Source: Bacteroidia bacterium
GTDB lineage: Bacteria > Bacteroidota > Bacteroidia > J057
NCBI GenBank assembly: GCA_022760475.1
Contig: JALEFZ010000086.1
Coordinates: 1 to 64,000, forward strand
Length of the DNA stretch: 64,000 nt
Direction of reading: 5' to 3'
Shown: piece by piece, positions 23,871-40,016 of the stretch
Layout: every line of letters begins with the position of its first letter
How positions within the stretch are numbered: the stretch's first letter is position 1
Made by a program: the position numbers and the translations under genes
Notes under the pieces: generated by a model
Told to the model about the DNA's origin: nothing
The model's database searches: none
What the model saw: the letters and a program-made list of their open reading frames with translations, nothing else

Positions 23871-23881
23871 AGACTAGATAA

Positions 23882-24850
23882 ATGGATTTTATATTACTCC
23901 AGGACATGGATAAAGCAGCATATTTAAATAGTTGGGCAGAGTTGGCAAGGATATTTTTGCCATACTTATTGATCAGGTTTACCCTTCAAAGAGATTCCTG
24001 GGTGAATAAAAAAAAGGAGAAGATTATATGGATCTTACTGGAGGCATTGGTCATTGGGATTTCAACCTGGATTCTCTGGGGCAGAATGGAGGAACTTCAA
24101 ACCATTTGGGTCATTCCTATTATGACAGTGGTTTATAGTTTAGTTGAGAAATGGAGACTGTCAGTTGAAGAAAAATATGAGAAAACGGAGAAGAAACACG
24201 ATGATGCGAAGGAAAAATATGAGGACAAACTGAAGGATGAAAAAGCTAACAAAGAAGAAATTCAGGAGGTGAGTAGTTTAGTTGAAGCGCTAGGCAATGA
24301 AACGAGCAAAAGATATCGCAGGAAAACGTGGGTTATTCTTACTGGAATACTAATCTGCATAGTTGTATTGACCAGCTATTGGATTTTGAGTGATTTAGCT
24401 AGGCAAAATTCGCAAGAAGTAAATTTAAAAGTCTTAAAAGATAGTTTTAGCTTCATACATAAATCTGAATTTTGGCTGCTGGCTTTGGGGTATTTCATCA
24501 TCTGGGGACCGACAGGTTACATCATGAAGATCATCACCATCCCTTGGCAAAGAGAGCTTCCAAAGAAAAATAAAGGCCTACCCAACGCAGGGCGATGGAT
24601 AGGCATACTGGAGAGAACATTGGTCTTGTCATTTGTCTTGATAAACTCTGTTTCTGCCATCGGTCTACTGATCGCAGCGAAATCTGTCCTCCGCTTTGGG
24701 GAAATTAAGGAGGCTGATAACCGAAAAGAGGCTGAATACATCCTTATTGGAACACTGCTGAGTTTCACCATTGCCATAGCAGTGGGAATCTGGCTAAACG
24801 CTACAGTCGGCGACACAATCAAGGATATACTTGAAGGTAAAGGATTTTAG
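23882..24850 (+). CDS. Multi-pass membrane protein with coiled coil, SatD partner
   Basis: This 322-residue protein is not recognised. Two or three hydrophobic segments occupy residues ~15-90. A highly charged helix rich in Glu and Lys (about 95-145, with repeated EKYE/EKKH-like heptads) should be a cytoplasmic coiled coil. Four more transmembrane segments follow (~147-170, 195-215, 238-263, 280-300). SatD genes are often paired with a DUF3307 membrane protein, but this one does not look like that family. The 11-bp gap from satD indicates an operon and a shared job. The next gene is convergent and ends 8 bp away. Confidence 0.7.
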   Translation: MDFILLQDMDKAAYLNSWAELARIFLPYLLIRFTLQRDSWVNKKKEKIIWILLEALVIGISTWILWGRMEELQTIWVIPIMTVVYSLVEKWRLSVEEKYEKTEKKHDDAKEKYEDKLKDEKANKEEIQEVSSLVEALGNETSKRYRRKTWVILTGILICIVVLTSYWILSDLARQNSQEVNLKVLKDSFSFIHKSEFWLLALGYFIIWGPTGYIMKIITIPWQRELPKKNKGLPNAGRWIGILERTLVLSFVLINSVSAIGLLIAAKSVLRFGEIKEADNRKEAEYILIGTLLSFTIAIAVGIWLNATVGDTIKDILEGKGF

Positions 24851-24858
24851 GTAAGCCC

Positions 24859-26277
24859 TTATTCTATGGAAAGATAGTAATAGCCATCTGAATGGCTTGG
24901 AACACGTTTTGTGATTTTATCTCCATTTCCATCAATCCATATAACTTTAACGCTGTATCCTTGAGCCTTATCAAAAGCGATGTCCAAACTTTGAAAGCTC
25001 TCATAGGAATTTTTTCCAAAGCGGATTTCCTCTACCTTTTCATTCCCGGCAAAAGAAAAATTAAGTATAAACTTTGCCTCTACAAAACCCGCCTTTTCCA
25101 TATCCTCTTGCGAAAGCTCGACTTCCAATACCTGGTGAGCAATGGGATTCTGATCGGGATTGGTAGTCAAGTCCAATAACCCTTCGCAGAAGTTTGCCTC
25201 CGTCCAACCATTGGATTTGCTGATGCTGCCATCATTCTTGATTTCGGTGATCTGATATCGATACCCACGACTCATGTCCAGGACTACCGGAAAATTTACT
25301 TGTTGTTCGATGGTAAATGTCTGCTGCGCACTGAACTGGTAGTTGATGGGACGGGAGAGTTGGCCACCCAGGGTATAAGCCTGAAGGCTCACCCGTTTGA
25401 TAGCCAGGTCAGGCCTCAAGCCATCTGCAAAGTCGTAGCAACGAAGTTCAAGAGAGGGAAAACCGACAGGAAAACCGTCCGCATTAACATCGACCTTTTT
25501 CAGGTTTTGAGGCCATGTGTTGACATCAGCCAAAATTTCAAGGGTATTTCCAAATACCACATGGGAACCTACAGTTGTATCGCTATCTGCGGTAACATCC
25601 TCTTTGAGTTCCTGCAACTTGGAACGGCTGCTTGAATCCCCTTCAAGGATCAAACTATTGCTGATTCCGGGAATGGCACTTGCCAGGTAGGTATAGGAAA
25701 AGCTGATGGACAACTGTTCTTTCTCCATGTTTTGGATCAGCAATTGAGCTTCATGGGGGTTTAACTTAAGTGTAAAAGTCTTTTCCTCCCATTCTGAAGG
25801 GCCGTTTTCCGAAATATTTACTCCTCCGAGCCTTCGGTTTTGTGGATGTCCATTGGGATTGCTTCCAACTGGCGCGACAAGTTCAGCGCCAATCCCAGCG
25901 AGGGGAATAGGCTTCAGCCTGACCCAATTACCGGTTTGCTGGCGAAGGCTTCGTTCTACTTGATAGATTTGATTCTTGTCTGCCAGAGGCCGCTGGATGG
26001 TAAATTGTGCCACAGAGAGAAATTCATTTCCTCCTTCATTCGCCCTACAGGAACTTCCTGTGTACCTCATGGCGAGGAACTGAAATGAGGGCCTACCACT
26101 CTTCTCAATCTTGAGTTGAAGAGGTGGAGGCACATAATAATAAAGGCTGCTGTCCTTGAAGTCCTGGAAAATTCGTAAGCCTTCCATAGAGCGTTCTGTA
26201 TTCAGCATGGGTTGAGCTTGAAGAGAAAAGCTTAGGAGGAGGAATATCCCAGGGAAAAATTTTATAAAGTGAATCAT
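24859..26277 (-). CDS. Secreted YYxP-family protein, divergent member
   Basis: From the ATG at 26277 the protein has 472 residues and a signal peptide (FFPGIFLLLSFSLQA). The N-terminal block has the cluster signature: SSLYYYVPPPLQL, then SGRPSFQFLAMRYTG and a short GxNEFLSVAQF segment. Later parts are beta-rich, with LKLNPHEAQLLIQNM matching the L-x-x-x-GAxLL helix of its paralogs. The end, SVKVIWIDGNGDK then SDGYYYLSI, mirrors the paralogs' last strands. Function is unknown. It is the last of three leftward genes; a hairpin at 26294-26329 lies directly before its start. Confidence 0.75.
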   Translation of the reverse strand: MIHFIKFFPGIFLLLSFSLQAQPMLNTERSMEGLRIFQDFKDSSLYYYVPPPLQLKIEKSGRPSFQFLAMRYTGSSCRANEGGNEFLSVAQFTIQRPLADKNQIYQVERSLRQQTGNWVRLKPIPLAGIGAELVAPVGSNPNGHPQNRRLGGVNISENGPSEWEEKTFTLKLNPHEAQLLIQNMEKEQLSISFSYTYLASAIPGISNSLILEGDSSSRSKLQELKEDVTADSDTTVGSHVVFGNTLEILADVNTWPQNLKKVDVNADGFPVGFPSLELRCYDFADGLRPDLAIKRVSLQAYTLGGQLSRPINYQFSAQQTFTIEQQVNFPVVLDMSRGYRYQITEIKNDGSISKSNGWTEANFCEGLLDLTTNPDQNPIAHQVLEVELSQEDMEKAGFVEAKFILNFSFAGNEKVEEIRFGKNSYESFQSLDIAFDKAQGYSVKVIWIDGNGDKITKRVPSHSDGYYYLSIE

Positions 26278-26293
26278 GAGAAGGATCAAGTTA

Positions 26294-26329
26294 TAGACCC
26301 TGTCAGGCTTATAACCCTGACAGGGTCTA
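26294..26329. repeat. REP-like perfect hairpin
   Basis: TAGACCCTGTCAGG (26294-26307) and CCTGACAGGGTCTA (26316-26329) form a perfect 14-bp stem with an 8-nt loop. The ACCCTGTCAGG core resembles short palindromic repeats common between Bacteroidota genes. It has no T-run on the minus strand, so it is not a typical terminator. It sits between two genes of the same leftward unit and may set transcript stability. Confidence 0.6.
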
Positions 26330-26366
26330 GTTAAAAAGTGCAAATTGCAAACACGACTTAGGCATA

Positions 26367-27773
26367 TTATTCTCCAAGCTCAGGAATCAATTCCTTCACC
26401 TGCTTGTCTCCTATGACAATTTCTAGGTTGTCAGTTCTTGCCCAATGGTCAGACCTGTAAACTGTACCGTCAGGAAGATAAAAGGTCAACTTATACTCAA
26501 TGTCTGCTCTGATTCCCGGGTCCAGGAATACAGTACCCAAAGCACCACTGAAACCATCGGAACGAATCATTTTGTGAGGCAAATCAATCTTGGTCGTACC
26601 GGTAGGATCGGCCTGTCTCGAACGCAGTTCAATCTTCATCATCTCTGCCTTCACAAACCTCAAGGGCGAGAGGGTCGTAAGCACTACCTCCTTGGCACGA
26701 TCATCTCCAAGGGCTTTCATGATTTTTTTCTGCACAAGTCGATTGCAGGACTTACAGGGATTTACAGAGTATTCAATCCATACCTTCTTCACGCTTTTGT
26801 CATTATCCAGAAAACCAGGAAATAGCCTGGCGTCAATTTTTGCAAGGGCTTTTTCTGGGATTTCTGCATTTCCCATTTGCCAGGTATAGATAAAGGGCTT
26901 GACTATATTGCCAGTCTTCTTCATCCTCAGGACATGTAAGTTCTTCAAGACCAAGGGATAATCAGAAGGGTTTCTCCAACCATCTCGACGCCATGCGCTG
27001 CCATTGAGTTCGATGGTGCCAAAGGTTGAAGGATCGTCCAACTTTAGCGTAATGGGAATGTCTTTCGCCGGAATATCCGAACCTTCCGGGCTTAGTTTTA
27101 ATGTTCCATTCAAACCAATGTTGCTGAAAAGAGCCGTCATCAGAAAGTCAGGCCTGTCAATAGGAAAAGATATGGTAATGGGATCAAGAAAGTCCTTAGG
27201 CGCCTGAACAATGATACTTGAAGGATCAACCCCATAATTTTGGACTTGAGGAAAAGAAACCTCCACCGCCACAGGCATTGCCAGGAGCTTGTTTACAGGA
27301 TATTGACTGGAAACCGGATCACTTTTGACATCGAGTTCCAACAGCGCCCTGGCAATCTCTATGTCCCTTCTGGTGATGTTGGGTTTCAGACGAGCTGTAA
27401 CTACAACCTTTCCACCTCCTGCGCTGGCATCCTGGTTAAATTCAACGTCATATTTCCCCGTCTGGGCATCCCAATTCAGGCTGTAGGCCGAAGGCAGATA
27501 GTAAAAATATCCTGATTTAGGATTCACATCCCTATAGATATTTCGATAAAGATTAAGGATGCCATTATTGGATTCAAAAGGATAATCGCTCTTCACCTGA
27601 TTCAGGTATTCAAAGGGAGAATTGGAAGGACCTTGTGGGTTCAAATCATCCTCTTCATTTTCTGTGTTGCTGTCAGTTCCAAAGTCAATGGTATTCCCTT
27701 GAGCATTAAGAAGAGAAATACCCTGACCAAGAATAAGGCTTAGGCAAAGGAGTATATGAATGATATTTTTCAT
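26367..27773 (-). CDS. Secreted YYxP-family protein
   Basis: From the ATG at 27773 the protein has 468 residues and a signal peptide (IIHILLCLSLILGQGISLLNA). A Glu/Asp/Asn-rich linker follows (TENEEDDLNPQG). The cluster signature appears as SGYFYYLPSAYSLNWD near residue 85. A CKSC pair sits at about residue 340. The C-terminal beta strands (FLDPGIRADIEYKLTFYLPDG) match the end blocks of the plus-strand paralogs. No named domain is recognised. It lies 29 bp from the gene upstream of it on the same strand. Confidence 0.75.
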   Translation of the reverse strand: MKNIIHILLCLSLILGQGISLLNAQGNTIDFGTDSNTENEEDDLNPQGPSNSPFEYLNQVKSDYPFESNNGILNLYRNIYRDVNPKSGYFYYLPSAYSLNWDAQTGKYDVEFNQDASAGGGKVVVTARLKPNITRRDIEIARALLELDVKSDPVSSQYPVNKLLAMPVAVEVSFPQVQNYGVDPSSIIVQAPKDFLDPITISFPIDRPDFLMTALFSNIGLNGTLKLSPEGSDIPAKDIPITLKLDDPSTFGTIELNGSAWRRDGWRNPSDYPLVLKNLHVLRMKKTGNIVKPFIYTWQMGNAEIPEKALAKIDARLFPGFLDNDKSVKKVWIEYSVNPCKSCNRLVQKKIMKALGDDRAKEVVLTTLSPLRFVKAEMMKIELRSRQADPTGTTKIDLPHKMIRSDGFSGALGTVFLDPGIRADIEYKLTFYLPDGTVYRSDHWARTDNLEIVIGDKQVKELIPELGE

Positions 27774-27802
27774 TTGGGTGATTGTTGTGTGTGGCAAAGT
27801 AT

Positions 27803-28384
27803 TCAGGGCTTAATGGTTCGGGCAGATTTAAAAGGGAGCAGTTTGACAGGTATCGTAATGTTGGAAATGGCATTGGGGTCATTGGTAGGAGGACTTACAC
27901 GCCATTCCTTCGAAAGGAGGTAGATGTATTTGGGTGCTGTAATGTCTTGAATGCCGCCCCCATCAGAAATACCGGGTATTCCATCAAGGACTGAGTCTCC
28001 CTTTTTCTCCTTCTTCACAAGCAAAACCTTAACCTTCCGAGATGAGATATAAGGCTTGGAATAGGACCTGCCTGGAGTAAAACTGAAGGAAATATCTATG
28101 TTCCCATCTCCAGGAGCCAGGTCTACAAGGGCTACATTGATGTCCTGAAGAGGGTTGTCTCCTCCTGTCATGATAAAGGCCTTTGCTTGCATGGAAACAT
28201 CCTTGGGAATGTTCTCATAATATAGGGTCAAAGTGATTTTCTGTTCCTCCTCACTCTGTTTGACCAGCTTGCTGATGTTTTTACTACCAAACATTGGACC
28301 TTCTAAAAGTTTGAGCTCCTGCTGCCCATGGCCAATCAGTGGGCAAAGAAGAATAAGAAGCACTAAGGCTTGAATCGCTTTCAT
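27803..28384 (-). CDS. Secreted protein, cluster accessory
   Basis: From the ATG at 28384 this 193-residue protein has a signal peptide (IQALVLLILLCPLIGHG, then QQ). The mature part is beta-rich and polar and carries a Gly/Asp-rich loop (GDSVLDGIPGISDGGG). It lacks the Y-Y-x-P signature of its neighbours, although the strand ITLTLYYENIPKDVS is vaguely similar. It is the first gene of the leftward unit. Its position, secretion signal and spacing tie it to the cluster; its role is unknown. Confidence 0.7.
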   Translation of the reverse strand: MKAIQALVLLILLCPLIGHGQQELKLLEGPMFGSKNISKLVKQSEEEQKITLTLYYENIPKDVSMQAKAFIMTGGDNPLQDINVALVDLAPGDGNIDISFSFTPGRSYSKPYISSRKVKVLLVKKEKKGDSVLDGIPGISDGGGIQDITAPKYIYLLSKEWRVSPPTNDPNAISNITIPVKLLPFKSARTIKP

Positions 28385-28734
28385 GATGATTCGGATTTTC
28401 TTAAGCGGTTTGAAAAAATAATTCAAAGTTGTTGATCACAGTATGGGTCGTGCCGACTAACCAGCCAAGCAACAGTTACTGAAAAAAGGACGAATGAGAA
28501 GAAGAGTTTACTTGTCCTGAAAACAGTTTTTCTGATTATCCAAGGAATGAAGGGGATGAAAAAAAGGACAGTTAGGGAAATGTAAATTCTTTTTTGAGAT
28601 CGTCTGACAAGTAGAAATTTTCTTAAAACACCACTAGCCCCATGACGGAAGCCCCTGTTTTGACCATTCATTCGGAGTAATTCGAAACGGAAGAAACAAG
28701 GATGCATTCTTTCAACCTCATGAAAAACATACCT
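28385..28734. other. Divergent intergenic region of the secreted-protein cluster
   Basis: These 350 bp separate the two divergent runs and should hold both promoters. I see no full TTTG/TAnnTTTG promoter on either strand. A minus-strand frame (28423-28671) could encode two membrane helices, but nothing else supports it. Confidence 0.5.
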
Positions 28735-30531
28735 ATGAAAAAGCTTATTCTCATAATTTCAACAATGGTATTTTGCCTGACATCAGCACATGCAGTAGTC
28801 ATGTATGATGAGGGGCGAGAAACCATCGATGGCATCCAATTGCTACGAGACCGAGAAGATCCACTTGCCTATTATTACCTTCCCCAATATCCCCATTTGT
28901 CAAAAAAAGAAGACGGGAGTTTGGAGTTTCTTTGTATGAAGTATGTCGGTAAGGGAGGTGAAGAGACCAATGGAGGAATATTCCATGCACTGATCGAATT
29001 TTCCCTTCCTGTTGAAGTCATTGCTACTTTACAGGCAAAATTGGAAGAAAAAATCAATGGAGCCAGGATTGTAGGACCAGTTCCAATGATGCAAGCGGCA
29101 GAAGACGATGAAGATGGGCTTGCCCGATTCTCTGTAGTGTCTGCCATTTTGAATGATACCAAAGGCGACAACCCATTCACTTCAAATGTCCTGACATCCG
29201 GATTTGCTCCTTTACTGCCAGGTTCAAAGGCTGCGATTGCTGCCAAACTCAATCAAAGTGGAGCAACCCTGCTTTGGGAGTCGTTATCTGGGCCTACTTC
29301 AGATATTTCGGTATCTGTAAGAGGATATTACGAAGCAGCCGTAAAGGGATACAATGCCGTAATTACTGCGGATATGTCTACAGTTTACAAGCATTATTCA
29401 AAAATCAAAAACCAACAATCCGGATACACCAAAAAGCAGCTCAGAGATATCAATGATTCATTGATTCAGACTCAGATGATCAAGATCGACGTTTTTGACA
29501 GATCCAAAGGCCTTGGAATCAAGGTAGATGACATGGAAAACATCCTAAATATGGTTACGGACAAGTTGATCGAACTGATGTTTGATGCAGAAAATGGCTG
29601 GGCCAAAACTCCAGAAAGGGAAGCCGCTGTGGAAGCCAATCAATTGAAGGGAAGGCAGGAAAGGGGATGGTTTGCCAAGACATTCCTTGGACCAGATAAC
29701 ACACCTTATTATTCTGATAATCAATATGTCCTGAAGAAAAGAGAAGATGTTAGGGTAAATAAATTCTATCTCAATCTATCCAAGTCTACCACGATTAAAG
29801 TACCCATCTATTCTTCAGGCAACATTGGAGGACTGTATGATAAAATGAAAGAAGATCCCAGGTATTTCAGGATCGTGGACATGGATGATGCTGCATTCCA
29901 AAAAAGAGATGTACACTTTCAGGTAGATGGTACTTACATCAATGCTTTCGAGGAACTGATCAATTTTGCCACCATTACTTTTGTAAAGGACAAAGAGGGT
30001 GGGGAAGCCATAACCAGAGACCTGGTCTTCAGAAAAGAAGGCATCGACAAAAAGTACTTCCAAACAGTCAGTTACCCCCGCCTTGGAAGCGCTGAAGCAG
30101 ATTGGCTCAATTACAAATACAAAGTGAGTTGGAGCATCAAAGGGATTCCTGAAGCCATCGTTCTTCCAAGCGAAAATACATGGGAAAGGACCAATGCAAC
30201 TTCAATTCCACTTGTACCTCCACTGGAAAAGAGAAGCCTGGAAGTGGATGCGGATAGAGGGTTGTTCAAAGAGTCAAATGTCTTGTCTTGCACCATTCGC
30301 CTGATGACAATTTTGGGAGGAAAGGCGAGGGTTCACAAAACATTGGTACTTCGTGCAAATGACACTGAAGGTACAAGCAAGACCTCACTCTTTTTTGATC
30401 CTGGTGAGCCGATTCTTTATGAAGTGAGCTGGTATTCAAGAAATGGGAGGGTGAAGAGGAAGGCTGAAGTATTGGATGGAGAATATCTTTTCCTGATACC
30501 CCCTTCAGAGGATGAGTTTACCAAGAATTAA
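28735..30531 (+). CDS. Secreted YYxP-family protein
   Basis: From the ATG at 28735 the protein has 598 residues and a signal peptide (KKLILIISTMVFCLTSAHA). Shared blocks, in order: DPLAYYYLP, DGSLEFLCMKYVG, GGIFHALIEFSLP, IVGPVP, FAPLLPGSKAAIAAKL, NQSGATLLWESL, a middle region, then FQKRDVHFQVDGTY and a C-terminal block with YKYKVSWSIKG and PPLEKRSLEVD. The upstream in-frame ATG at 28702 would add 11 residues before the signal peptide and is less likely. It is the first gene of a seven-gene rightward unit; 21 bp separate it from the next. Function is unknown; export to the periplasm or surface is likely. Confidence 0.8.
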   Translation: MKKLILIISTMVFCLTSAHAVVMYDEGRETIDGIQLLRDREDPLAYYYLPQYPHLSKKEDGSLEFLCMKYVGKGGEETNGGIFHALIEFSLPVEVIATLQAKLEEKINGARIVGPVPMMQAAEDDEDGLARFSVVSAILNDTKGDNPFTSNVLTSGFAPLLPGSKAAIAAKLNQSGATLLWESLSGPTSDISVSVRGYYEAAVKGYNAVITADMSTVYKHYSKIKNQQSGYTKKQLRDINDSLIQTQMIKIDVFDRSKGLGIKVDDMENILNMVTDKLIELMFDAENGWAKTPEREAAVEANQLKGRQERGWFAKTFLGPDNTPYYSDNQYVLKKREDVRVNKFYLNLSKSTTIKVPIYSSGNIGGLYDKMKEDPRYFRIVDMDDAAFQKRDVHFQVDGTYINAFEELINFATITFVKDKEGGEAITRDLVFRKEGIDKKYFQTVSYPRLGSAEADWLNYKYKVSWSIKGIPEAIVLPSENTWERTNATSIPLVPPLEKRSLEVDADRGLFKESNVLSCTIRLMTILGGKARVHKTLVLRANDTEGTSKTSLFFDPGEPILYEVSWYSRNGRVKRKAEVLDGEYLFLIPPSEDEFTKN

Positions 30532-30552
30532 GTAGCCGCAAAAACAAAAACG

Positions 30553-32289
30553 ATGAAAGTAATCCAAATTTTTATTTGGCTAGGATTGTTGTGGCCAATG
30601 TTAGGGGCTCAACTTCACGGCCAACAGGTATTGATCGACAGGGGAGTGAATGTCGAAGGCCTTTGGGTTTTCCCGCTCTTGAGTGATCCCAATACCTATC
30701 TCTACCTTCCTTATGAGTCTAAATTGTCAACGGACGAACAAGGAAATCCCAAATTCTCACTTTTGAGGTACGTAATCAATGAGCCTGGGGAAGGACAGGC
30801 CTCTGAAACGATCACTGAGGCAGATGGGGGGGCAGTACTTCATTTCCTGATCGAGTATGGAACTCCAAAAGAATTGGTAGAAACTGCCCAGTCCAGTTTA
30901 AGAGAAAGAATGGAAAACGACTCCATTAAGGTCAGAGGGCCTGTAATTTTTGAAAAAGGCAGGTATACATTGGTTTCTTCCATTATCAAGAACAAGCAAA
31001 AAGAAATGGAGGTCCTCGCAACAGGGGAAGCTCCGGTTCTGGAAGGATCAAAAATCGCCCTCAGCTTTGAGCTGACGCCTCAAAAGTCCAAACTTTTATT
31101 GGAGAGTTTGAAAATGAAAACCTCAGACTTGTCTATTGTATTTGACATGGCATTTTCTGGGCTAACTGATAGTTACAAGGCAATGCTCGAGGTGGACTGG
31201 TCGGAAATCCAGCAAAGTCAGGCCTTCAAAGCTGGTGGTAGTGTCTACTTCGTGGGGGCTGATGTGGAGTTGGGCTTTGAACGATTAAGAAAGGACAATG
31301 CCATAAAGCTGACGACTGTTGGGGATGGTGGAAATCTGGATGCCTTGGTACAGACGGTCTATGATAAATTGCTGAAAATGCTATTCGAACCTGTCAAACC
31401 TGAATCGGTTCCTGAAGACCAACAAGGTGGTTTGATGGATGCCATTGGTACTGCGATAGGTGGAGCCTTGGGTAATAGCAGAAATACGACAGGTTTCGGG
31501 CTGAATGTCGGTTACCAAATGAAGGATTTCAAAACCGAAGGGAAATCGATCATGCACTTCAATGGACGTTCTACCGTCCAAAGGCATCATTTTATCACCT
31601 TCAATGCTGGGAACCTTTACACCAAATATGGCAAAAATAAGGCAGTTTTCCAGGATGTACCCCTATATGACCTGGCTTTCCAGCAGCGAGAAATCTACGT
31701 CGGAGTAGATGGCGACCTGGAAAAAGAGTTTGAAAGTATGCTCAATAGCGTAACGGTCAGTCTTAGAAAAAAGCACCAGAATGGAAAAGAAAGCCTTAGG
31801 CAGATGATTCTAACAAGGGAGTCATTCCAGGAATACGATGGCAAAATGTCTATGGTATACGGTTCCTATGAGGATAGCAACCGCACCGAATGGCTCAACT
31901 ACGAATTCCAGACAATCTGGCAATTTCAGGGGGGAGGAAGCATGTCTAGTTCCTGGGAAAAAGGAAATGCTTCGATGATCAACCTATATACGCCATTTGA
32001 AAGAAAACTGATTGAGGTAGACGGAGACCTGGAAAGCCTAAAAGCCAAGGATGTAAGGGCCATTGTTCTAAATATTGAGTATCCATTTTTTGATGAAAGG
32101 AAGAAAAAAAGGGTAACCATAAGACCCGGGGATGAGCTTGGAGATAAGGGAATTGAGATTACCCTCCCCAATGAGGTAGATGAAGTTTCCTATTCATTGC
32201 TATGGATTCAAAAGGATGGGAAAAGAGTCGAGAAAAAGGGGACTGATAAGTATGGCTTGATTTTCATCGATGAAATGCCGGAACCATGA
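30553..32289 (+). CDS. Secreted YYxP-family protein with glycine-zipper segment
   Basis: A 578-residue paralog with a signal peptide (IFIWLGLLWPMLGAQLHG). Blocks: DPNTYLYLP, QGNPKFSLLRYV, GGAVLHFLIEYGTP, VRGPVIFEKG, APVLEGSKIALSFEL, then SFQEYDGK and the C-terminal WLNYEFQTIWQFQGG and FERKLIEVDGDLESL. Residues ~290-306 (GLMDAIGTAIGGALG) form a small glycine-rich hydrophobic stretch like a membrane-inserting glycine zipper. It overlaps the next gene by 4 bp (ATGA), so translation is coupled. Closest in layout to the 37336-39279 paralog. Confidence 0.8.
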   Translation: MKVIQIFIWLGLLWPMLGAQLHGQQVLIDRGVNVEGLWVFPLLSDPNTYLYLPYESKLSTDEQGNPKFSLLRYVINEPGEGQASETITEADGGAVLHFLIEYGTPKELVETAQSSLRERMENDSIKVRGPVIFEKGRYTLVSSIIKNKQKEMEVLATGEAPVLEGSKIALSFELTPQKSKLLLESLKMKTSDLSIVFDMAFSGLTDSYKAMLEVDWSEIQQSQAFKAGGSVYFVGADVELGFERLRKDNAIKLTTVGDGGNLDALVQTVYDKLLKMLFEPVKPESVPEDQQGGLMDAIGTAIGGALGNSRNTTGFGLNVGYQMKDFKTEGKSIMHFNGRSTVQRHHFITFNAGNLYTKYGKNKAVFQDVPLYDLAFQQREIYVGVDGDLEKEFESMLNSVTVSLRKKHQNGKESLRQMILTRESFQEYDGKMSMVYGSYEDSNRTEWLNYEFQTIWQFQGGGSMSSSWEKGNASMINLYTPFERKLIEVDGDLESLKAKDVRAIVLNIEYPFFDERKKKRVTIRPGDELGDKGIEITLPNEVDEVSYSLLWIQKDGKRVEKKGTDKYGLIFIDEMPEP

Positions 32290-32957
32290 AAAAGCGAATC
32301 TGGATATACCTGATTGGGATGCTAATACTTCCAGCGATTGGTAAGGCTCAGGCATTTAAGCCCGAAAGCAAAATCAGTTTGAGTCTTAAGGATTCTAGTG
32401 AATGGGTCTTAATCTCTCGAGGCGATAATCCCCAGGCTTATTATTACTACCCAGCCAAATTGAGACTTAGTGTCAACAAGAGAGGCAGGGAGGAGATGTC
32501 GTTCCTGGAGATCAGAAAAAGTACAAATCCAAAAGATTCCAGTCTTCAGGCTGGTATCCTACACTTTCTGCTAAGCTGGGATCTGAGCCCAAGGCAAATC
32601 ATGGAACTGGATACGGCTGTAAAACATCAAATCAATAAGCATGCAATGCTTTGGGGCAGTATTCCCTTGCAAACTGATGAAACTGATCCTGCAGTAGAGA
32701 TATCTGCTACAAAGGCCAATGAATATGTAAATGTTCTGGTAAAAAGTCTACGTGCTTCTTCTCAGATACCTACTCATCCCGGAGGAAAATGGGCTGCCAG
32801 CTTTCAATTTGAAGCTAAAGAGGCTGAAAAAGTCCGCGAGGCTTTCAATGATCCTGCTCTCTGGGGAGATGGAGCCATTCACTGGAAATACTATTTCCAG
32901 GAATTGCAGGAAGAACTAACCCTAAGCATAGCTCTATCTGAGTTTTTGAGGAAATAA
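32286..32957 (+). CDS. Short secreted YYxP-family protein (N-terminal module only)
   Basis: This 223-residue protein has a signal peptide (IWIYLIGMLILPAIGKAQA) and only the N-terminal module of the family: NPQAYYYYPAKLRLSVN, EEMSFLEIRKS, QAGILHFLLSWDLS, then ISATKANEYVNVLVKSL and a final WAASFQFEAKEAEKVREAF. It lacks the middle region and the C-terminal beta block. The frame is clean with its own start overlapping the previous gene by 4 bp, so it is either a functional minimal member or a stably truncated copy. Confidence 0.75.
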   Translation: MKKRIWIYLIGMLILPAIGKAQAFKPESKISLSLKDSSEWVLISRGDNPQAYYYYPAKLRLSVNKRGREEMSFLEIRKSTNPKDSSLQAGILHFLLSWDLSPRQIMELDTAVKHQINKHAMLWGSIPLQTDETDPAVEISATKANEYVNVLVKSLRASSQIPTHPGGKWAASFQFEAKEAEKVREAFNDPALWGDGAIHWKYYFQELQEELTLSIALSEFLRK

Positions 32958-32986
32958 AATTTATGTCAACAATCACTTACAATACA

Positions 32987-34993
32987 ATGAACCCAAATAA
33001 AACCTTTAAAAGCCTGTTGTTGATGATCTTCGGAATCCTTTTGTTGAGGCCGGGACAAGCACAGGTCATTGACAATGAAAACAAAGTCAATGTGATCCTT
33101 TCTGATGGGGTGAATGTAACCTTATATGGGGCAGCATCAACCCTTTCAGATGAGAAATCCAAGGAATACTATTACATGCCTACCAAACTGCGCCTGTCCA
33201 AAAAGGCAGATGGTACACCCATGTTTCTATTCCTGAAATACACCACAGAAGATCCAAGGGGAGATGAGAGCAATGGAGCCATTCTACATATGTTGATGGA
33301 GTATGGCTTGACCAGGGAGCAGGAAAGAGAACTTGGCAATAAGTTAAAAAGACAAGTGAAAGGCGCTGTCTTGAAAGGAGTCGTGGATGTAGATCCGGCA
33401 GAGGAAAATTCCATTCAGATTGTATCAGCCACACTCAACAACAAAAAAAGAGTAAGGACGCTGGTTCATTCAGGAAAGGCTCCGAAGTTCCCTGGAAATA
33501 AGATTGCCGTTGCGGCTGAACTGGACAAAAATGCGGCCCAGTTGATGGATGCAACATTTAAGGAAACATCTTCTATCGCTGACCTGTCGATTACCCTTGC
33601 CTACGATTACCATGTCCGTGTACCTGCGGTTAAAGGCTACATCATTGAAGACTGGTCAAAACTGGATAGCCTCCACTTGTTGGACAGTGCCTATTACAGC
33701 AAAGAGGTCAAAAAGGAAAAAGACTACGGAGAGAAAGCCATTAATGGAGTTGTAGGTGGAATCGTAGGAGGACCGATTGGTGCAGCCATTGGTTGGTTTG
33801 GTTCTGGAAATAAAAAGACCACCAAAAGGACTTATGATGAAATGAGGAATTTCTATCGCTTCATGGAAGAAAAGGGAGTCATAGAAATGCGATTGGAGGA
33901 AAACATAGACGATGCGCGTATTCAGACCATCCGAGACGCCTTTTTCCAACACTTCCTCAACAGCTTTACCGAGCGGGTTTCAGAGGAGGTTCCCTCACCG
34001 GGCAAACAAGAGAAGGTGGCCATGCCCAATATCAAGATTGGAAACGAATATAAGTTTAGAAGAGAATTTGTAGAGATGATAGTGGAAAAAAGAAGAAGAG
34101 AATTCAACCTTTCTTATGCTTTTGCGGTGAAGAAATCATTCCAAATGACCGAGAATTTGGCTTCCTGGTACGATGGAGTAAAGCATAATCCCAAATGTGT
34201 AGGTGAAGTGGTACTGAACGATCCCTTCTTCCAACACCGACAAGTCAACATGATCCTTGACCTGGATGCAGAGGATATGATGGGAAAGGAACTGAACTAT
34301 GTAACAGTCAATGTCAGGAAATCGAGGAAGTTACAAGGGGGAAACGATTTCGAAGAGGCCATTACTTTTGACAGGTCATTCTTTGCCAACAATGGGAACA
34401 GAGCTGAATTGGTCTACTCAAAAGCAAAGTCTGATAAGCCTTCCGAGTATGAATACAAGGTTCAATGGAGCTTAAGGGGAGGGAATATTTGGCCTACACC
34501 AAAGGAAGATACTTCTTGGCAAAAAGGCTCATGGCAGGCGATTTCTCTTTCTCCGCCGGTCGAACCCAGGTTTATCAGGTATGAAGTCGACCTTGACGAG
34601 TTACAGGAACTGGATCTTAGGAATGCTACCCTCCAACTTCGTTATCAGAAGTTTGGGCGAGAAGTGGAGACCAACCTCAACATCAGTTTGTATAGCAAAG
34701 AGCCTTACAAGGAAAAAACCATCTACATGGACAAGGGAACTCAAGGCTATGCCTATCGGCTGGTATTCACCCATAAGCGAAAAGGCGTGATGGCCATGCC
34801 ATGGGAAGCCAAGATCAATACCGATTACATCTTTGCGGTGGTTCCACAGGAACTCTACAACAATGATGAAACCTTTATAGAGCAAGCTCTGGAGGCAGGA
34901 AAGACCATTCTAAGGGCAGCCAGGGGAGATCAGGAGGTGGACGAGAAAGACGCTATCCTGGATAAGTTCGCCGATGTCCTCAAAACTGATTAA
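32987..34993 (+). CDS. Secreted YYxP-family protein with glycine zipper
   Basis: From the ATG at 32987 the protein has 668 residues and a signal peptide (FKSLLLMIFGILLLRPGQAQ); the frame is open to 32963. Blocks: KEYYYMPTKLRLS, DGTPMFLFLKYTT, NGAILHMLMEYGLT, APKFPGNKIAVAAEL, KNAAQLMDATF. A glycine zipper follows at ~250-270 (GVVGGIVGGPIGAAIGWFG). Then come ASWYDGVKHNPKCV, LNDPFFQHRQVNMIL, YVTVNVRKSRK, YEYKVQWSLRGGN and a C-terminal YQKFGREVE block. It is the nearest relative of the next gene, sharing most blocks almost residue for residue. Confidence 0.8.
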   Translation: MNPNKTFKSLLLMIFGILLLRPGQAQVIDNENKVNVILSDGVNVTLYGAASTLSDEKSKEYYYMPTKLRLSKKADGTPMFLFLKYTTEDPRGDESNGAILHMLMEYGLTREQERELGNKLKRQVKGAVLKGVVDVDPAEENSIQIVSATLNNKKRVRTLVHSGKAPKFPGNKIAVAAELDKNAAQLMDATFKETSSIADLSITLAYDYHVRVPAVKGYIIEDWSKLDSLHLLDSAYYSKEVKKEKDYGEKAINGVVGGIVGGPIGAAIGWFGSGNKKTTKRTYDEMRNFYRFMEEKGVIEMRLEENIDDARIQTIRDAFFQHFLNSFTERVSEEVPSPGKQEKVAMPNIKIGNEYKFRREFVEMIVEKRRREFNLSYAFAVKKSFQMTENLASWYDGVKHNPKCVGEVVLNDPFFQHRQVNMILDLDAEDMMGKELNYVTVNVRKSRKLQGGNDFEEAITFDRSFFANNGNRAELVYSKAKSDKPSEYEYKVQWSLRGGNIWPTPKEDTSWQKGSWQAISLSPPVEPRFIRYEVDLDELQELDLRNATLQLRYQKFGREVETNLNISLYSKEPYKEKTIYMDKGTQGYAYRLVFTHKRKGVMAMPWEAKINTDYIFAVVPQELYNNDETFIEQALEAGKTILRAARGDQEVDEKDAILDKFADVLKTD

Positions 34994-35044
34994 TCAAGCT
35001 GAATTAAAATTTCACACAACAATACCCATATAAACATTAAAATT

Positions 35045-37273
35045 ATGAAACTTAAAATGCATACAGGTGCCCTGGGAACAATGTTTCTATTGTTGGCATT
35101 TGTATTTGATGGATTGCTGATGGGGCAAATCGTCGATTATCAGAATGTGGTAACCGTTATTCTGGACGATGGTACGCCAGTGATCATGTATGGTGCAGTC
35201 AGTACGAAGCGGATGAGTGCAAGCACGGGTAGATTGTCTACCAAGAGAGACTTGCCATTCATTGAGGGAAAACCTACTCCCAGACAAAATCAAACCCGCG
35301 CCTATGCATATGCACGAAATAGAAGACGTCCTTCTCAAAGCATATCTGTAGGTTCTGCTATCGCTCCGATCAGATACTCTGATGGCTACTATTTCTCAGG
35401 CGAATACTTCTACCTGCCTACCAATTTGAGGTTGGCCAAAGGACCTGATGGGACGCCTAACTTCCTGTTTTTAAAGTATACCACGGATGAAAAAGCGGAC
35501 GCTGGAGGTACCCAGGGTGCATTGATGCACTTCCTGATGGAGTGGGGCTTGACTTCTGAGCAGGAGCAAGAAGCCCAGCAGAAATTGGAGGAGAAGATCA
35601 AAATGCTCAAGCAAGGCGATCGCTCAGGTAAATACAGGATGATCAGCAAGCCTGTCCTGAAAGGTCCTATCAAACTGACGGCAGAGGAAGAAGGTAGCTT
35701 TGAAATTGTTTCTGCTACCCTTCAGGATAAGACCCTTGCACCCACCGTTGTAAAGTCTTCGAGGGCTCCGACCTTGCCTGGACAGAAGATTGCCGCCGCT
35801 GCGAATTTGGATAAAAATGGTGCCCAGCTATTGGCCGCAACTTTTGAAAAAAATCGATCTATCACAGACCTGTCAATCGAGTGTTTTTTCAAGTACAAGG
35901 TTCTGGCTCCTGCTGTGCAAGGAAAAATTCGTATTGATTGGGTGAAGATGTACAACAATTACTTTAAGGATTACGAGGAAAAAGAAACCAAGAAGAAGTA
36001 CTCCCATACCCAGGTGCGTACCAAAAGGAAAAAGTTTTTGGGCATTACTTATCACAAATCTCGCAAGACCAGGAGGATTTATAAGAATGTACCTGAAATC
36101 ACCAACATCAACCTGTTTACTGAAGATGCTATGTCTGCAGGAGTCATTGACTTTACCCTGGACAATTTCAGTGATCCTAATGATCCTATTGCTAAAAACC
36201 TGATTGAGACTTTTACTCAGATGTTGCTCGATCAGCTTTCATTTGATGACCAAGGTGAGAGTGTAGAAGGTGAGCAGTTGGAAGATCCTGAAAAAGAAGC
36301 GGACGGCCTTAAGGAGAGTGTAAGTAATTACAGAAACTATAAGATTGATGTTCAGAAGATCAAGTCCAAGATGGAAAAAGGTGTTCAGATCATTAACATG
36401 AACTACCGAAGTGCATTTTGGGAAACAGTTGGTATCACTGATAACCTTGCCACCTGGTATGATGGAGTCCGGAACAATCCCAAGTGTGTGTCTTCTGTAA
36501 ATCTTAATGATCCATTTTTCCAGCACAGAGACATCAATTTCATCCTTGACCTTGAAGCTGAAGAGATTTTCAGTAAGGAAATCAACTATGCCACCGTGAA
36601 TGTAAGGAAGCGCAGATCCAGCGGATCAGATTTCAAGAGTTCATTTACGATGGGTAGGGATTACTTAAGGAACGAAGGTACACTGGCAACTGTATCATAC
36701 GCACGTGGAGATGATAGAAACTCTGACCTTTATGAATACAAGGTACAATGGTCGCTAAAAGGAGGGAACATCTATCCTGAGAATCCCCAATGGGTAGATG
36801 GTGATTGGCAGGGGGTGACCCTGGCTGCTCCCTTGAAACCTAGAAGCATTGAATTCGAGGCTGATCTGGACGAAATGCGAGAGCTGGGAGTTACCCGAGC
36901 TACGCTCCAGGTGCGCTACCAGAAATTCGGCAAAGAAGTCGAAGAAAACATTCCACTTACAGTTTCTAAAAACGAGCCCCTGGTAAGCAGTACCATCTAT
37001 CAGGATCGAGAAATGCAAGGATATGTATATCGACTGGTATTGAACCACAAAGAGCATGGCAAACTTGCCCTGGACTGGGAAGCCAAAATCAATGACGATT
37101 ATGTCTATGCTGTTATTCCTGATCAGCTCAGGGAAAAGAACAAGGAATTCATCCTTAAGCTGGTCCAGGCAGGACGTTCTGTCTTAAAACCTGGTGCAGA
37201 TGGATCTGTAAATCCTAAAGCAGCTGTTTTAGACAAATTTGCTGGAGCAATTGAGCTTTTCTTATCTGAATAA
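35045..37273 (+). CDS. Secreted YYxP-family protein, longest member
   Basis: A 742-residue paralog of the previous gene with a signal-like start (GTMFLLLAFVFDGLLMGQ). Blocks: VTVILDDGTPVIMYGAVS, an Arg/Ser-rich insert at about residues 55-105, then GEYFYLPTNLRLAK, DGTPNFLFLKYTTD, GALMHFLMEWGLT, APTLPGQKIAAAANL, a basic Lys/Arg-rich segment near 315-345 where its sister has a glycine zipper, TWYDGVRNNPKCV, LNDPFFQHRDINFIL, YEYKVQWSLKGGN and YQKFGKEVEEN. Function unknown. A hairpin (37282-37304) follows its stop codon. Confidence 0.8.
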   Translation: MKLKMHTGALGTMFLLLAFVFDGLLMGQIVDYQNVVTVILDDGTPVIMYGAVSTKRMSASTGRLSTKRDLPFIEGKPTPRQNQTRAYAYARNRRRPSQSISVGSAIAPIRYSDGYYFSGEYFYLPTNLRLAKGPDGTPNFLFLKYTTDEKADAGGTQGALMHFLMEWGLTSEQEQEAQQKLEEKIKMLKQGDRSGKYRMISKPVLKGPIKLTAEEEGSFEIVSATLQDKTLAPTVVKSSRAPTLPGQKIAAAANLDKNGAQLLAATFEKNRSITDLSIECFFKYKVLAPAVQGKIRIDWVKMYNNYFKDYEEKETKKKYSHTQVRTKRKKFLGITYHKSRKTRRIYKNVPEITNINLFTEDAMSAGVIDFTLDNFSDPNDPIAKNLIETFTQMLLDQLSFDDQGESVEGEQLEDPEKEADGLKESVSNYRNYKIDVQKIKSKMEKGVQIINMNYRSAFWETVGITDNLATWYDGVRNNPKCVSSVNLNDPFFQHRDINFILDLEAEEIFSKEINYATVNVRKRRSSGSDFKSSFTMGRDYLRNEGTLATVSYARGDDRNSDLYEYKVQWSLKGGNIYPENPQWVDGDWQGVTLAAPLKPRSIEFEADLDEMRELGVTRATLQVRYQKFGKEVEENIPLTVSKNEPLVSSTIYQDREMQGYVYRLVLNHKEHGKLALDWEAKINDDYVYAVIPDQLREKNKEFILKLVQAGRSVLKPGADGSVNPKAAVLDKFAGAIELFLSE

Positions 37274-37281
37274 ATCCCAAG

Positions 37282-37304
37282 GCCCGAAGGGTATTCCTTC
37301 GGGC
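37282..37304 (+). terminator. Weak hairpin within the rightward unit
   Basis: GCCCGAAGG (37282-37290) and CCTTCGGGC (37296-37304) form a perfect 9-bp stem with a 5-nt loop. What follows (ATCATTTCC) is a poor T-run, so it may only partly stop transcription before the next paralog. Confidence 0.5.
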
Positions 37305-37335
37305 ATCATTTCCAATTTTCAAACACATAACAAAT

Positions 37336-39279
37336 ATGAATCGCATTATCTTAAGTATATGGGTCTTGCTTCAGTTGGGATGCTCTGGCCTGATGGCTCA
37401 GCAGTTTCTCCTGGACAAACCTGTAAGTGCAGGGGAGTTGACCCTCTTTCCGAGCATTGACAATCCGAATGAGTTTTATTACCTGCCCGACAAGATCCAG
37501 ATCGGTAAGCATGCAGACGGATCTCCCCAGTTTTCATTTATCAAGTATGTTAAAAATACAGATGCCAGAGGAGGTTCTGATGTGATCACCGAATCCAACG
37601 ATGCAGGAGGTATTGTTCACGCAGTTGTTGCCTTGGATGTAAGTGAAGAACAACTCAAGGAAGCTGGCCAAGCACTTCGTAGAGTAAAATCAGCAGGAAA
37701 AATTGTAGGTCCCGTTGTTTATAAAAGTGGTACTGTTGCTTTAATATCTTCCTTTAATAAGGAAGGAGAGAATGTAGAAGCTGTAGTTGGATTGGGCACG
37801 GCTCCCATCCTTGAGAATCAAAAAGCGGCGGTTTCAGTACACCTGAGCCAGAGAGGTGCAGACATCCTCTGGGCCACCTTTCAGACACCAACGCCCGACT
37901 TTTCTATTTCTTTCGAAATGGAGATCGAAGGCTTTCTGTCTCCCAAAAGAGCCAAAATTACCGCGAATTGGGAACGAGTATATAGCCACAAATCATTCGA
38001 AGCAGCCCTGGCCAGCCCTATGCTTTCAGGTGAAATCAAAATGGCATTTGACGATTTGAGAGATGAAGGTGCAATCAAGGTAGAGCAAGTGGGAGAAGAT
38101 GACCAGATGGATGCATTGATCCAAACTGCCTACACCCAGTTGACCAACCTGATGTTTGACAAGGTGGCAGGTTCCGGGGTTCCAAAGGTGAGTGAACTAT
38201 TTCCCGGTTCAGATAAATCCATGCTGGACCGTGCAACCGAAACCCTGCGTCATCACCGCAAGGAGGCCATAGACTACAATACCAAGATGAAGGAGCTTGA
38301 AAACAAGCGATTTGAGCAGGAGGTAAAGCTGAAATCTGAGCTTGCAAGAGCTAGACAACAGCAATTTGCACAGAACGGCTCAACTTATCAGGCTCCAAAC
38401 AGACTTGATGCAGATGGCAATGCATTGCCAGAGAACGGAAACAATGAAGACCGCAATGCCAATAACAACAATCAAAATAGAGAAAGAATGGACGTACCTA
38501 CCATGTCTGTAGCCCTTTCCTACCAGATGAAAAAGGAAAAGCGTTCGGGGAAATTTACCATTGACCTGAATAAGTACACCAAGGATCTTCGCTCAAGTAA
38601 TTTTGTAGAGAATTTTGGTTCCTTCATCAACATGGAAGCTTGTCCTTCCTGTTTCAAAAGGGTTAACCTTTATGATCCACTTTATACCCAAAGAAATATC
38701 CATATCCGTGTTGACGGTTCTGTTTCGGCTGATGACTTCGGGAAATACCTAAATGGGGTAGAAGTAAGCATCAGGAAAAAGCATGAAAATGGACAAATCA
38801 CTTTGAAGGGAGTACAGATCAACAAAAAGCTGTTTGTTGACAAGGCGAATGATTTTGTTGTGAATTATGGATGGCAGGGAGACGACAGCAGAGAAGATTG
38901 GCTGGAGTATGAATTCCGTACCAAGTGGAGCTTCTTTGGAGGTGCTTCTTACGAAACCGAATGGCAAAAAGGTGAGGACAATGTCATTGGATTGGCACCT
39001 CAACTGGTGAGGAAGCCAGTTTATATCGAAGCTGATTTCGAAGAACTCAAGGACGTTAGATCTGCTGAAGTCAAACTCATCAGCAAGGTGAATGGCAAGG
39101 AACTTATCCAAAATGTATCACTCAATAAAAAGACAGGTCAATCTTCAAAAACGGTTGACTTGATTATGCAGAGAGATTCAGATGAGTTCGAATACCAGAT
39201 TGTCTACTTCATCAAAGGAAAAGGCCCGAAAGAATTTCCTAGGCAAAGCTCTACCTACGGCCGCATTTACCTCGATTAA
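37336..39279 (+). CDS. Secreted YYxP-family protein with coiled coil and Asn/Gln-rich linker
   Basis: A 647-residue paralog with a signal peptide (IILSIWVLLQLGCSGLMAQ). Blocks: NPNEFYYLPDKIQIG, DGSPQFSFIKYVKN, GGIVHAVVALDVS, IVGPVVYKSG, APILENQKAAVSVHL, RGADILWATF. Residues ~305-345 form a charged coiled coil (KMKELENKRFEQEVKLKSEL). They lead into a low-complexity Asn/Gln-rich linker (NGNNEDRNANNNNQNRE, ~370-385). The C-terminal part has ACPSCFKRVNLYDPLYTQR, LEYEFRTKWSFFGG and the usual end block. Closest in layout to the 30553-32289 gene. Confidence 0.8.
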   Translation: MNRIILSIWVLLQLGCSGLMAQQFLLDKPVSAGELTLFPSIDNPNEFYYLPDKIQIGKHADGSPQFSFIKYVKNTDARGGSDVITESNDAGGIVHAVVALDVSEEQLKEAGQALRRVKSAGKIVGPVVYKSGTVALISSFNKEGENVEAVVGLGTAPILENQKAAVSVHLSQRGADILWATFQTPTPDFSISFEMEIEGFLSPKRAKITANWERVYSHKSFEAALASPMLSGEIKMAFDDLRDEGAIKVEQVGEDDQMDALIQTAYTQLTNLMFDKVAGSGVPKVSELFPGSDKSMLDRATETLRHHRKEAIDYNTKMKELENKRFEQEVKLKSELARARQQQFAQNGSTYQAPNRLDADGNALPENGNNEDRNANNNNQNRERMDVPTMSVALSYQMKKEKRSGKFTIDLNKYTKDLRSSNFVENFGSFINMEACPSCFKRVNLYDPLYTQRNIHIRVDGSVSADDFGKYLNGVEVSIRKKHENGQITLKGVQINKKLFVDKANDFVVNYGWQGDDSREDWLEYEFRTKWSFFGGASYETEWQKGEDNVIGLAPQLVRKPVYIEADFEELKDVRSAEVKLISKVNGKELIQNVSLNKKTGQSSKTVDLIMQRDSDEFEYQIVYFIKGKGPKEFPRQSSTYGRIYLD

Positions 39280-39308
39280 ATTCCAGAACAAAAATTAACA
39301 AACAAATC

Positions 39309-40016
39309 ATGTTACGCATAACAGCTTTAATTCTATTGAGTGCATGCCTGATGGGCTCTGCACCTGTACATATGCCGCAGGCCTCCACGCTGCCTGAGAA
39401 GGTTGAGTTTGGGAAGAATGACCCTCAAAATCAATCTTACGATATATATTATCACGTTCCGTTTATCCCACAGCCTACTGGAGCTGCTTGTTGGGCAACT
39501 TCCATCGCCATGATCCTTTGGTGGAGAGACAATGAGGATGCTCAGATGTGCCTTCAGGATGCCTTGACACCTGCTCAAGTCGCTGGAAACCTGAGCTATT
39601 GGAACCAATACTTTACCAACGGACTGAGTTCATATGACGGAAGAGCATTACCTGCTTTGGGATTCGAGCGCATTGCTCCGCAATCATTTGAAGTATCTAC
39701 CCTTGCAGAATGGCTCAATACCTACGGCCCTATGTGGGTGGCTTACTTTGGATGTACCAATCCAGTAAGTAATTGCGGCCATGCTGTAGTTCTGGTTGGT
39801 CTGAAAGGGGATGGAACCCCTGGTGGAACCAAGGTAATCCTCCACGATCCTGATGATGGTACAGGAACCTATCCAAACTTAGGGGTAAGAGATCGCGAGA
39901 TGACCTACACGGAGTTTATTCAAAGATTGGATAACCGTGCTTTAGACAGACTGGATCGACCTGCCGCCCAAAATAACCAGGTAACTTTTCTGGCACATTT
40001 GAGGAGAAGTAATTAA
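39309..40016 (+). CDS. Papain-like cysteine peptidase (AvrRpt2/C70-like), probable lipoprotein
   Basis: This 235-residue protein begins LRITALILLSACLMG, whose LSAC can act as a lipobox. Its catalytic domain matches the AvrRpt2-like papain fold: Q55 (oxyanion) in FIPQPTGAACWATS with nucleophile C61, H158 in NCGHAVVLVGL, and D180 in VILHDPDDG. The full triad suggests an active protease or transglutaminase-like enzyme facing outside the cytoplasm. It is the last gene of the rightward unit, 29 bp after the last paralog. Processing or crosslinking of those proteins is a reasonable guess but not shown by the sequence. Confidence 0.8.
   Translation: MLRITALILLSACLMGSAPVHMPQASTLPEKVEFGKNDPQNQSYDIYYHVPFIPQPTGAACWATSIAMILWWRDNEDAQMCLQDALTPAQVAGNLSYWNQYFTNGLSSYDGRALPALGFERIAPQSFEVSTLAEWLNTYGPMWVAYFGCTNPVSNCGHAVVLVGLKGDGTPGGTKVILHDPDDGTGTYPNLGVRDREMTYTEFIQRLDNRALDRLDRPAAQNNQVTFLAHLRRSN

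What the first reader, a model, noticed from the sequence alone, without database searches (positions are those of the whole stretch)
24859..40016. Divergent cluster of eight related secreted proteins of an unrecognised family
Eight proteins (genes at 24859, 26367, 28735, 30553, 32286, 32987, 35045, 37336) share a block Y-Y-x-P...DGxPxFxFLKY...GxxxHxLxE. Members of the rightward run also share G-x-P-V, APxLPGxKIA and a C-terminal W-S-x-x-GG/E-x-D beta block. All have signal peptides, and none has a domain I recognise. Repeated tandem duplication with wide divergence, two divergent runs and a terminal peptidase point to a multi-part surface or periplasmic assembly that has not, to my knowledge, been described.
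Basis: partly seen in the sequence, partly recalled or inferred. Interest (0 to 1): 0.85.

Follow-up and report, generated by a model that had tools for sequence, protein, structure and literature searches.

The report
Unknown secreted scaffold with swappable hydrolases
The window holds a multi-gene secreted system made of six ancient, related but unrecognised building-block proteins; the same gene set recurs as one cluster per genome in rare bacteria of four phyla, nearly always ends in a protein-cutting or cell-wall-cutting enzyme, and that enzyme is exchanged together with the last building block, which suggests an undescribed scaffold that carries interchangeable enzymes.

Summary
Seven of the eight proteins are one family (pairwise E down to 1e-159). 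The eighth (26367) is a remote relative, seen only with its orthologues' profile. No member matches Pfam, NCBIfam, PHROGs, PADLOC or, for the member tested, PDB sequences. Relatives are not scattered: 16 of 16 first relatives sit in a syntenic cluster, and 12 of 12 genomes searched whole have one cluster. The 'tandem duplicates' are six ancient orthologous subunits kept across Bacteroidota, a betaproteobacterial MAG, a Planctomycetota MAG and Eisenbacteria. A slot after the last subunit holds a hydrolase in 21 of 23 loci, carrying one of two domains: C70 (papain-like; alone in the window, astacin-C70, M43-C70 with lost active site) or c2N (HExxH enzyme, amidase and others). Slot class changes once on the tree of the adjacent subunit (0/5000 shuffles) but five times, as at random, on the tree of another subunit. 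Two clusters 92% identical in DNA differ by replacement of most of that subunit plus the enzyme. Best reading: an exported hetero-oligomeric scaffold whose last subunit docks exchangeable hydrolases. Assembly, location and target are inferred; gene linkage alone could explain the co-exchange.

The parts
24859..26343 (-). A-group subunit of the family (signal peptide; real start probably an internal ATG, MIHFIKFF...)
   Evidence: 249.6 bits to the family profile; A-group clade n=15, support 1.0
26367..27797 (-). c0 subunit, remote relative with the YYLP block and a C-x-x-C motif
   Evidence: c0 family found in most loci; profile-profile link to the main family, 95.8% probability
27803..28426 (-). 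c3 protein, a free-standing form of the N-terminal region of long c0 proteins
   Evidence: c3 family conserved next to c0; c3 profile matches the N-terminal part of fused c0 proteins in L015 and L017 at 52 bits
28427..28701 (.). divergent intergenic region between the two runs, likely promoter region
   Evidence: gene coordinates; no Bacteroidota-type promoter consensus found there
28702..30531 (+). D-group subunit
   Evidence: one per locus, clade n=17, support 1.0
30553..32289 (+). E-group subunit; modelled as a beta-sandwich N-domain with alpha/beta insert plus two C-terminal Ig/FN3-like domains
   Evidence: clade n=18, support 1.0; AlphaFold2 mean pLDDT 81.9; N-domain model pLDDT 79.7
32286..32957 (+). 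F-group short subunit (N-terminal part only)
   Evidence: clade n=14, support 0.97
32987..34993 (+). GH-group subunit, first copy
   Evidence: clade n=26; 39% identical to the next gene
35045..37273 (+). GH-group subunit, second copy
37336..39279 (+). I-group subunit, last scaffold gene, proposed docking partner of the slot enzyme
   Evidence: in the C70-type clade of I subunits
39309..40016 (+). slot enzyme: secreted papain-like cysteine peptidase of family C70 with Cys, His and Asp in place
   Evidence: Pfam PF12385, 1.8e-20, 73.7 bits vs cut-off 19; alignment; the only C70 in the genome

Best explanation
The cluster encodes an exported hetero-oligomeric scaffold. Six kinds of related Ig-sandwich subunits (A, D, E, F, GH, I), with the remote relative c0/c3, assemble outside the cytoplasm into one particle or sheet, each kind at its own position. 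The last subunit (I) holds a hydrolase through a docking domain, either a C70-type papain-fold domain or the c2N domain. The catalytic part is exchangeable (C70, astacin, M43, an HExxH enzyme, a peptidoglycan amidase and others), so the chassis is general and the enzyme sets what is cut. Shown: the family, its ancient orthologous subunits, clustering, the hydrolase slot, shared docking-type domains, and co-exchange of I with enzyme class. Inferred: physical assembly, docking, location beyond Sec export, and use (probably attack on proteins or cell walls of neighbours or prey, or of polymeric food).
For: Six orthologous groups, D, E and F with one copy per locus. D and E distances between loci correlate, r=0.84, 0/5000 permutations. 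One cluster per genome in 12/12 genomes. Slot hydrolase in 21 of 23 loci. The c2N domain is shared by c2 and three different L013 enzymes, E 1e-8 to 8e-7 among 1121 ORFs; one of those is an Amidase_2. C70-like domains fused to M43 have lost Cys and His, as expected of a domain kept for binding; one still passes Pfam's cut-off. Slot class changes once on the adjacent-I tree (0/5000 shuffles) and five times on the E tree (2773/5000). L002 and L003: 91.7% DNA identity over 7371 bp ending about 100 codons into the I gene, then a different I and enzyme, then identity again at c0. Models show three beta-sandwich domains.
Against: No direct evidence of a complex. The I gene and enzyme gene are neighbours, so they may swap together by linkage without binding. 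The single class change on the I tree is partly one ancient split, so it is few independent events. c1, F and c3 are missing from some clusters. No T9SS sorting domain, lipobox or outer-membrane part was seen, so how it would reach the surface is unknown. A distant clade lacks signal peptides. G327 and G1236 show no recognised slot enzyme, and the slot protein of G309 lacks HExxH.
Confidence: 0.48

Rival explanations
1. The cluster is a contact-dependent or predatory killing apparatus: the scaffold is released or displayed and brings proteases and peptidoglycan hydrolases to other cells, as polymorphic toxins do.
For: Cargo of unrelated hydrolases behind shared N-terminal or C-terminal domains; amidases and a CHAP-PG_binding protein beside family members; caspases beside distant members; sparse distribution.
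Against: No immunity gene recognised; most slot enzymes are ordinary secreted peptidases that could be digestive; no phage-tail or secretion-system part found by PHROGs or Pfam in the window genes.
Confidence: 0.2
2. The family forms a cell-envelope or matrix layer, and the peptidase is a maturation or turnover enzyme of that layer, not cargo.
For: Ig-sandwich subunits resemble adhesin and matrix domains in general fold; a peptidase accompanies nearly every cluster.
Against: A maturation enzyme should be conserved, but the slot is filled by unrelated enzymes, some not peptidases, and is replaced between near-identical scaffolds.
Confidence: 0.17
3. The genes are a loose neighbourhood of secreted proteins for nutrient degradation that travel together but act separately; co-exchange of I and enzyme reflects linkage only.
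For: Neighbouring genes recombine together; glycoside hydrolases of families 97 and 65 flank the cluster.
Against: Six paralogous types retained in the same order across phyla is hard to explain without joint function.
Confidence: 0.12

Closest known systems
Cellulosomes (scaffoldin with cohesin-dockerin docked enzymes)
   Same: Proposed principle: a non-catalytic scaffold carrying exchangeable enzymes through docking domains.
   Different: No cohesin or dockerin domain in the window proteins; several distinct scaffold proteins instead of repeats in one; enzymes are peptidases and amidases.
Polymorphic toxin systems
   Same: A constant domain followed by unrelated catalytic domains, replaced by cassette exchange between close relatives.
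   Different: The exchange includes most of a scaffold subunit; no immunity genes, no known trafficking domain or secretion machine recognised.
Peptidase family C70 (AvrRpt2-like papain-fold peptidases)
   Same: The window's slot enzyme is a true member by profile and active-site residues.
   Different: Here encoded with a secreted multi-subunit cluster; in M43 fusions the active site is lost.
MoxR-vWA ternary and related conflict systems with caspases (PMC7159879)
   Same: Operons that pair a conserved core with caspases, trypsins and other peptidases.
   Different: Those are intracellular NTP-dependent systems; no NTPase or vWA core was recognised here, and the main clade is exported.

Membership tests
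Peptidase_C70 (gene 39309) | Profile score above Pfam's cut-off | tested here: met
   73.7 bits vs 19
Peptidase_C70 (gene 39309) | Catalytic Cys, His and Asp | tested here: met
   CWA, GHAVV and HDP aligned with other C70 domains
Peptidase_C70 (gene 39309) | Proteolytic activity | not testable with these tools
   no assay
Any family of Pfam, NCBIfam, PHROGs (subunits) | Match above the curated cut-off | tested here: not met
   no significant match for any of the eight proteins
Immunoglobulin/FN3-like fold (C-terminal domains of 30553) | Structural match to solved Ig/FN3 domains | tested here: inconclusive
   best Z 6.4, rmsd 2.9 over 73 residues to tenascin FN3, within the range of common arrangements
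Cellulosome | Cohesin and dockerin domains | tested here: not met
   none in the ten window proteins
Type IX secretion cargo | C-terminal sorting domain (Pfam or NCBIfam models) | tested here: not met
   no such match up to E=1 in the ten window proteins
Anti-phage defence systems (PADLOC) | Match to a PADLOC model | tested here: not met
   no significant match in ten proteins; novel defence not excluded
Phage tail-like particles (contractile injection systems) | Sheath, tube or baseplate homologues | tested here: inconclusive
   no PHROG match in the window genes; folds without sequence similarity not excluded
Polymorphic toxin systems | Constant domain with variable catalytic domains | tested here: met
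   c2N and C70-like domains with different catalytic partners
Polymorphic toxin systems | Adjacent immunity gene | tested here: inconclusive
   none recognised on reading neighbours; not searched systematically

The most novel reading that the evidence does not exclude
A previously undescribed class of bacterial extracellular machine: a hetero-oligomeric Ig-sandwich particle, spread across phyla as a cassette, whose final subunit is a specificity adaptor that is exchanged together with its enzyme, used to bring proteases and peptidoglycan hydrolases to other cells. A second clade without signal peptides assembles in the cytoplasm with caspases.
Probability: 0.22. Interest if true: 0.92.

Novelty: categorically new. 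Interest (0 to 1): 0.78.

Why it matters
If the reading is right, bacteria of at least four phyla share an unrecognised exported multi-protein chassis with interchangeable enzymes. It would be a new way to hold or deliver hydrolases outside the cell, with natural swap events that already map the adaptor. Even if only the family stands, it gives a profile to about ten hypothetical secreted proteins per genome, and two near-identical natural clusters with different enzymes make the docking idea directly testable.

Tried and rejected
Known families: Pfam, NCBIfam, PHROGs and PADLOC gave no significant match for the subunits. PDB by sequence: no match for 35045. Structure search: Foldseek top hits to the full model are long low-TM alignments to multi-Ig chains; for the N-domain nothing below E 0.01 in PDB or the viral library, and VIA best Z 7.1 to a beta-glucuronidase sandwich, within the range of common arrangements. 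I considered and dropped a MACPF/CDC pore reading: the hits to CDC toxins in the VIA list fall on the C-terminal Ig-like domain only. Viral, phage and plasmid collections: no relatives, so no sign of phage origin. Mirror-tree tests with the G and I groups were weak (r 0.07-0.46) because those groups hold two paralogues per locus; only D-E is clean. A first c2N profile did not find the L013 enzymes; one built from the closer c2 subtype did. A Bacteroidota promoter pattern found nothing in the divergent region and no more than chance in the window. No tRNA in the window. Papers: no description found, in an open-access library only.

Full report
WHAT IS THERE. The window (contig C47 of a 6.9-Mb genome, apparently Bacteroidota) carries, at 24859-40016, ten genes: three leftward (A 24859, B 26367, C 27803) and seven rightward (D 28702, E 30553, F 32286, G 32987, H 35045, I 37336, J 39309). 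The rightward genes are spaced by at most 63 bp or overlap, which fits one operon. A 275-bp gap separates the two runs.

THE FAMILY. A, D, E, F, G, H and I are homologous by BLASTP and phmmer and by an iterated profile. F is a short form with only the N-terminal part. B has no acceptable pairwise match; its orthologue family c0 aligns with the family profile at 95.8% probability over about 140 columns, so it is a remote relative. C belongs to family c3, which is the N-terminal region of long c0 proteins elsewhere, so C-B look like a split c0 gene. J is a C70 peptidase, with Cys, His and Asp in place, and the only C70 in this genome. No subunit matches Pfam, NCBIfam, PHROGs or PADLOC, and 35045 matches no PDB sequence.

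DISTRIBUTION. One scan of GTDB genomes with 35045 gave 16 relatives: Bacteroidota of several orders, plus MAGs assigned to Gallionellaceae, Sedimentisphaerales and Candidatus Eisenbacteria. All 16 lie in a cluster with further family members. In 12 such genomes searched whole, the strong matches lie together in one cluster, apart from contig breaks. The system is rare: 2 of 295 other Bacteroidota genomes, both distant forms, one of 240 others in one order, 2 of 245 others in one Planctomycetota sample, one of 397 others in the phylum of the Gallionellaceae MAG. It is commoner in the window's own order (5 of 22) and in the Eisenbacteria phylum (5 of 47). These searches score only the best candidates per genome and are lower bounds. 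No relative was found in viral contigs, phages or plasmids.

ORDER AND ANCIENT SUBUNITS. The recurrent order is D-E-F-c1-GH(1-2)-I(1-2)-slot enzyme, with c3-c0-A either downstream or upstream. c1 (about 235 aa) has a conserved His and a later NC.DF motif and a weak match to the permuted papain-fold family PPPDE (E 0.06); it is absent from the window. In the window c3-c0-A is turned to the other strand, which makes the 'two divergent runs'. A tree of 122 members splits into six groups (D 17, E 18, F 14, GH 26, I 28, A 15 members; support 1.0 for D, E and A), with D, E and F single per locus. The paralogues are therefore older than the divergence of these phyla or of the transfers between them, and were kept as distinct types. 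D and E distances between loci correlate (r=0.84, 0 of 5000 permutations). The non-Bacteroidota sequences group together in each long subunit type, so the set moves as a unit.

STRUCTURE. AlphaFold2 on 30553 with 60 sequences gave mean pLDDT 81.9: an N-terminal beta-rich domain with an alpha/beta insert and two C-terminal Ig/FN3-like domains. The N-domain alone gave 79.7. Searches gave no convincing relative. This supports an extracellular, scaffold-like protein without an evident active site; it does not show a new fold.

THE HYDROLASE SLOT. Directly after the last I gene, or after one of two I genes (in L002 and L006 after one further small gene), 21 of 23 inspected loci carry a hydrolase-type gene: C70 alone (window); astacin-C70 (L002, L006, L096); M43 with a C70-like domain (L008, G300, G310); c2, an approximately 500-aa protein with HExxH and a downstream EG or EA motif in all 12 main-type copies examined; a weak c2 relative without HExxH (G309); and in L013 three proteins with one N-terminal domain and different C-termini, one of them an Amidase_2. 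Exceptions: G327 and G1236. A c2N profile matches the three L013 enzymes at E 1e-8 to 8e-7 in a set of 1121 ORFs. In the M43 fusions the C70-like domain has lost the catalytic Cys (to Ala or Ser) and His (to Tyr), yet one still scores above Pfam's C70 cut-off. A catalytic domain kept without its catalytic residues is expected if it serves for binding.

CO-EXCHANGE. For 21 loci I built a tree of the I subunit next to the slot and labelled it by slot type, C70-bearing or c2N-bearing. The label changes once (0 of 5000 shuffles do as well). On the E-subunit tree (18 loci) it changes five times, no better than shuffled labels (2773 of 5000). The clearest case is L002 against L003: 91.7% identical DNA over 7371 bp, E, GH and I' proteins 98.6-99.1% identical, with the boundary about 100 codons into the I gene; then most of I (47% identical as protein overall) and the enzyme differ (astacin-C70 against c2); then 87% identity resumes at c0. 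So a cassette of I plus enzyme was replaced in an otherwise near-identical cluster. This fits a cognate I-enzyme pair. It does not prove it: the genes are neighbours, and linkage alone could move them together. The single change on the I tree also counts as few independent events.

DISTANT CLADE. Remote relatives (profile 47-170 bits) include clusters of several family members that mostly lack signal peptides. They lie beside caspase-domain proteins (G108), a 362-aa protein with GHG and WGC motifs and no Pfam match (G383, G1451, G1301), a CHAP-PG_binding protein (G1451), an Amidase_3 and a Nal1-type protein (G873), or an Amidase_2-like protein (G226, below Pfam's cut-off). The theme 'several family members plus a hydrolase' therefore extends beyond the main clade, though G226 and two Planctomycetota contigs (L066, L067) show a single member. 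How a signal-peptide-free version would act is open.

MECHANISM. Best-supported reading: a Sec-exported hetero-oligomeric scaffold in which each subunit type has its own place, with I as adaptor for an exchangeable hydrolase bound through a C70-fold or c2N domain. Shown: family, orthologous types, clustering, slot, shared domains, co-exchange. Inferred: complex formation, docking, location and target. Use against other cells is plausible because amidases, CHAP proteins and caspases recur, but digestion of polymers is equally open for the peptidase-bearing clusters.

NOVELTY. Neither the subunits nor the arrangement match a described kind in the resources used, and paper searches found nothing (open-access library only). 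The principle resembles cellulosomes and polymorphic toxins, but the defining parts of the former were not found and those of the latter only partly.

Noticed in passing
window 18687-20768 and 40077-42113: Glycoside hydrolases of families 97 (305.8 bits) and 65 (227 bits) flank the cluster on both sides.
   Followed up: partly
window 23190-24850: A SatD-family protein (PF16264, 7.7e-12) followed by a 322-aa membrane protein with no Pfam match, just beside the cluster.
   Followed up: partly
window 16710-18626: TPR protein with a C-terminal adenylate/guanylate cyclase domain.
   Followed up: no
L010:16431-22495: 2021-aa protein with DUF4347, a subtilase domain and Big_5 domains downstream of the Planctomycetota cluster.
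   Followed up: no
L091:4914-8753, L093:5826-9650, L095:7816-12072, L016:15313-18780: A related very large secreted protein follows the cluster in Eisenbacteria loci; the L095 copy has CARDB domains. It may be an additional component in that lineage.
   Followed up: no
L100:1655-2743, L101:4031-5119, L064:5030-5647 plus 4560-5090: A 362-aa protein (MKKYIILVAGYEY..., GHG and WGC motifs, no Pfam match) beside the signal-peptide-free clusters, possibly a clan-CD-like peptidase; in G383 it appears as two overlapping reading frames.
   Followed up: partly
L013:14461-18953: Three tandem secreted enzymes share one N-terminal domain and have different C-termini: an Amidase_2, a part with HSFGHG and HHCSSG motifs, and one unidentified.
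   Followed up: partly
L017:18027-18632: By eye, a REP-associated transposase-like gene downstream of one cluster, a possible trace of mobility.
   Followed up: no
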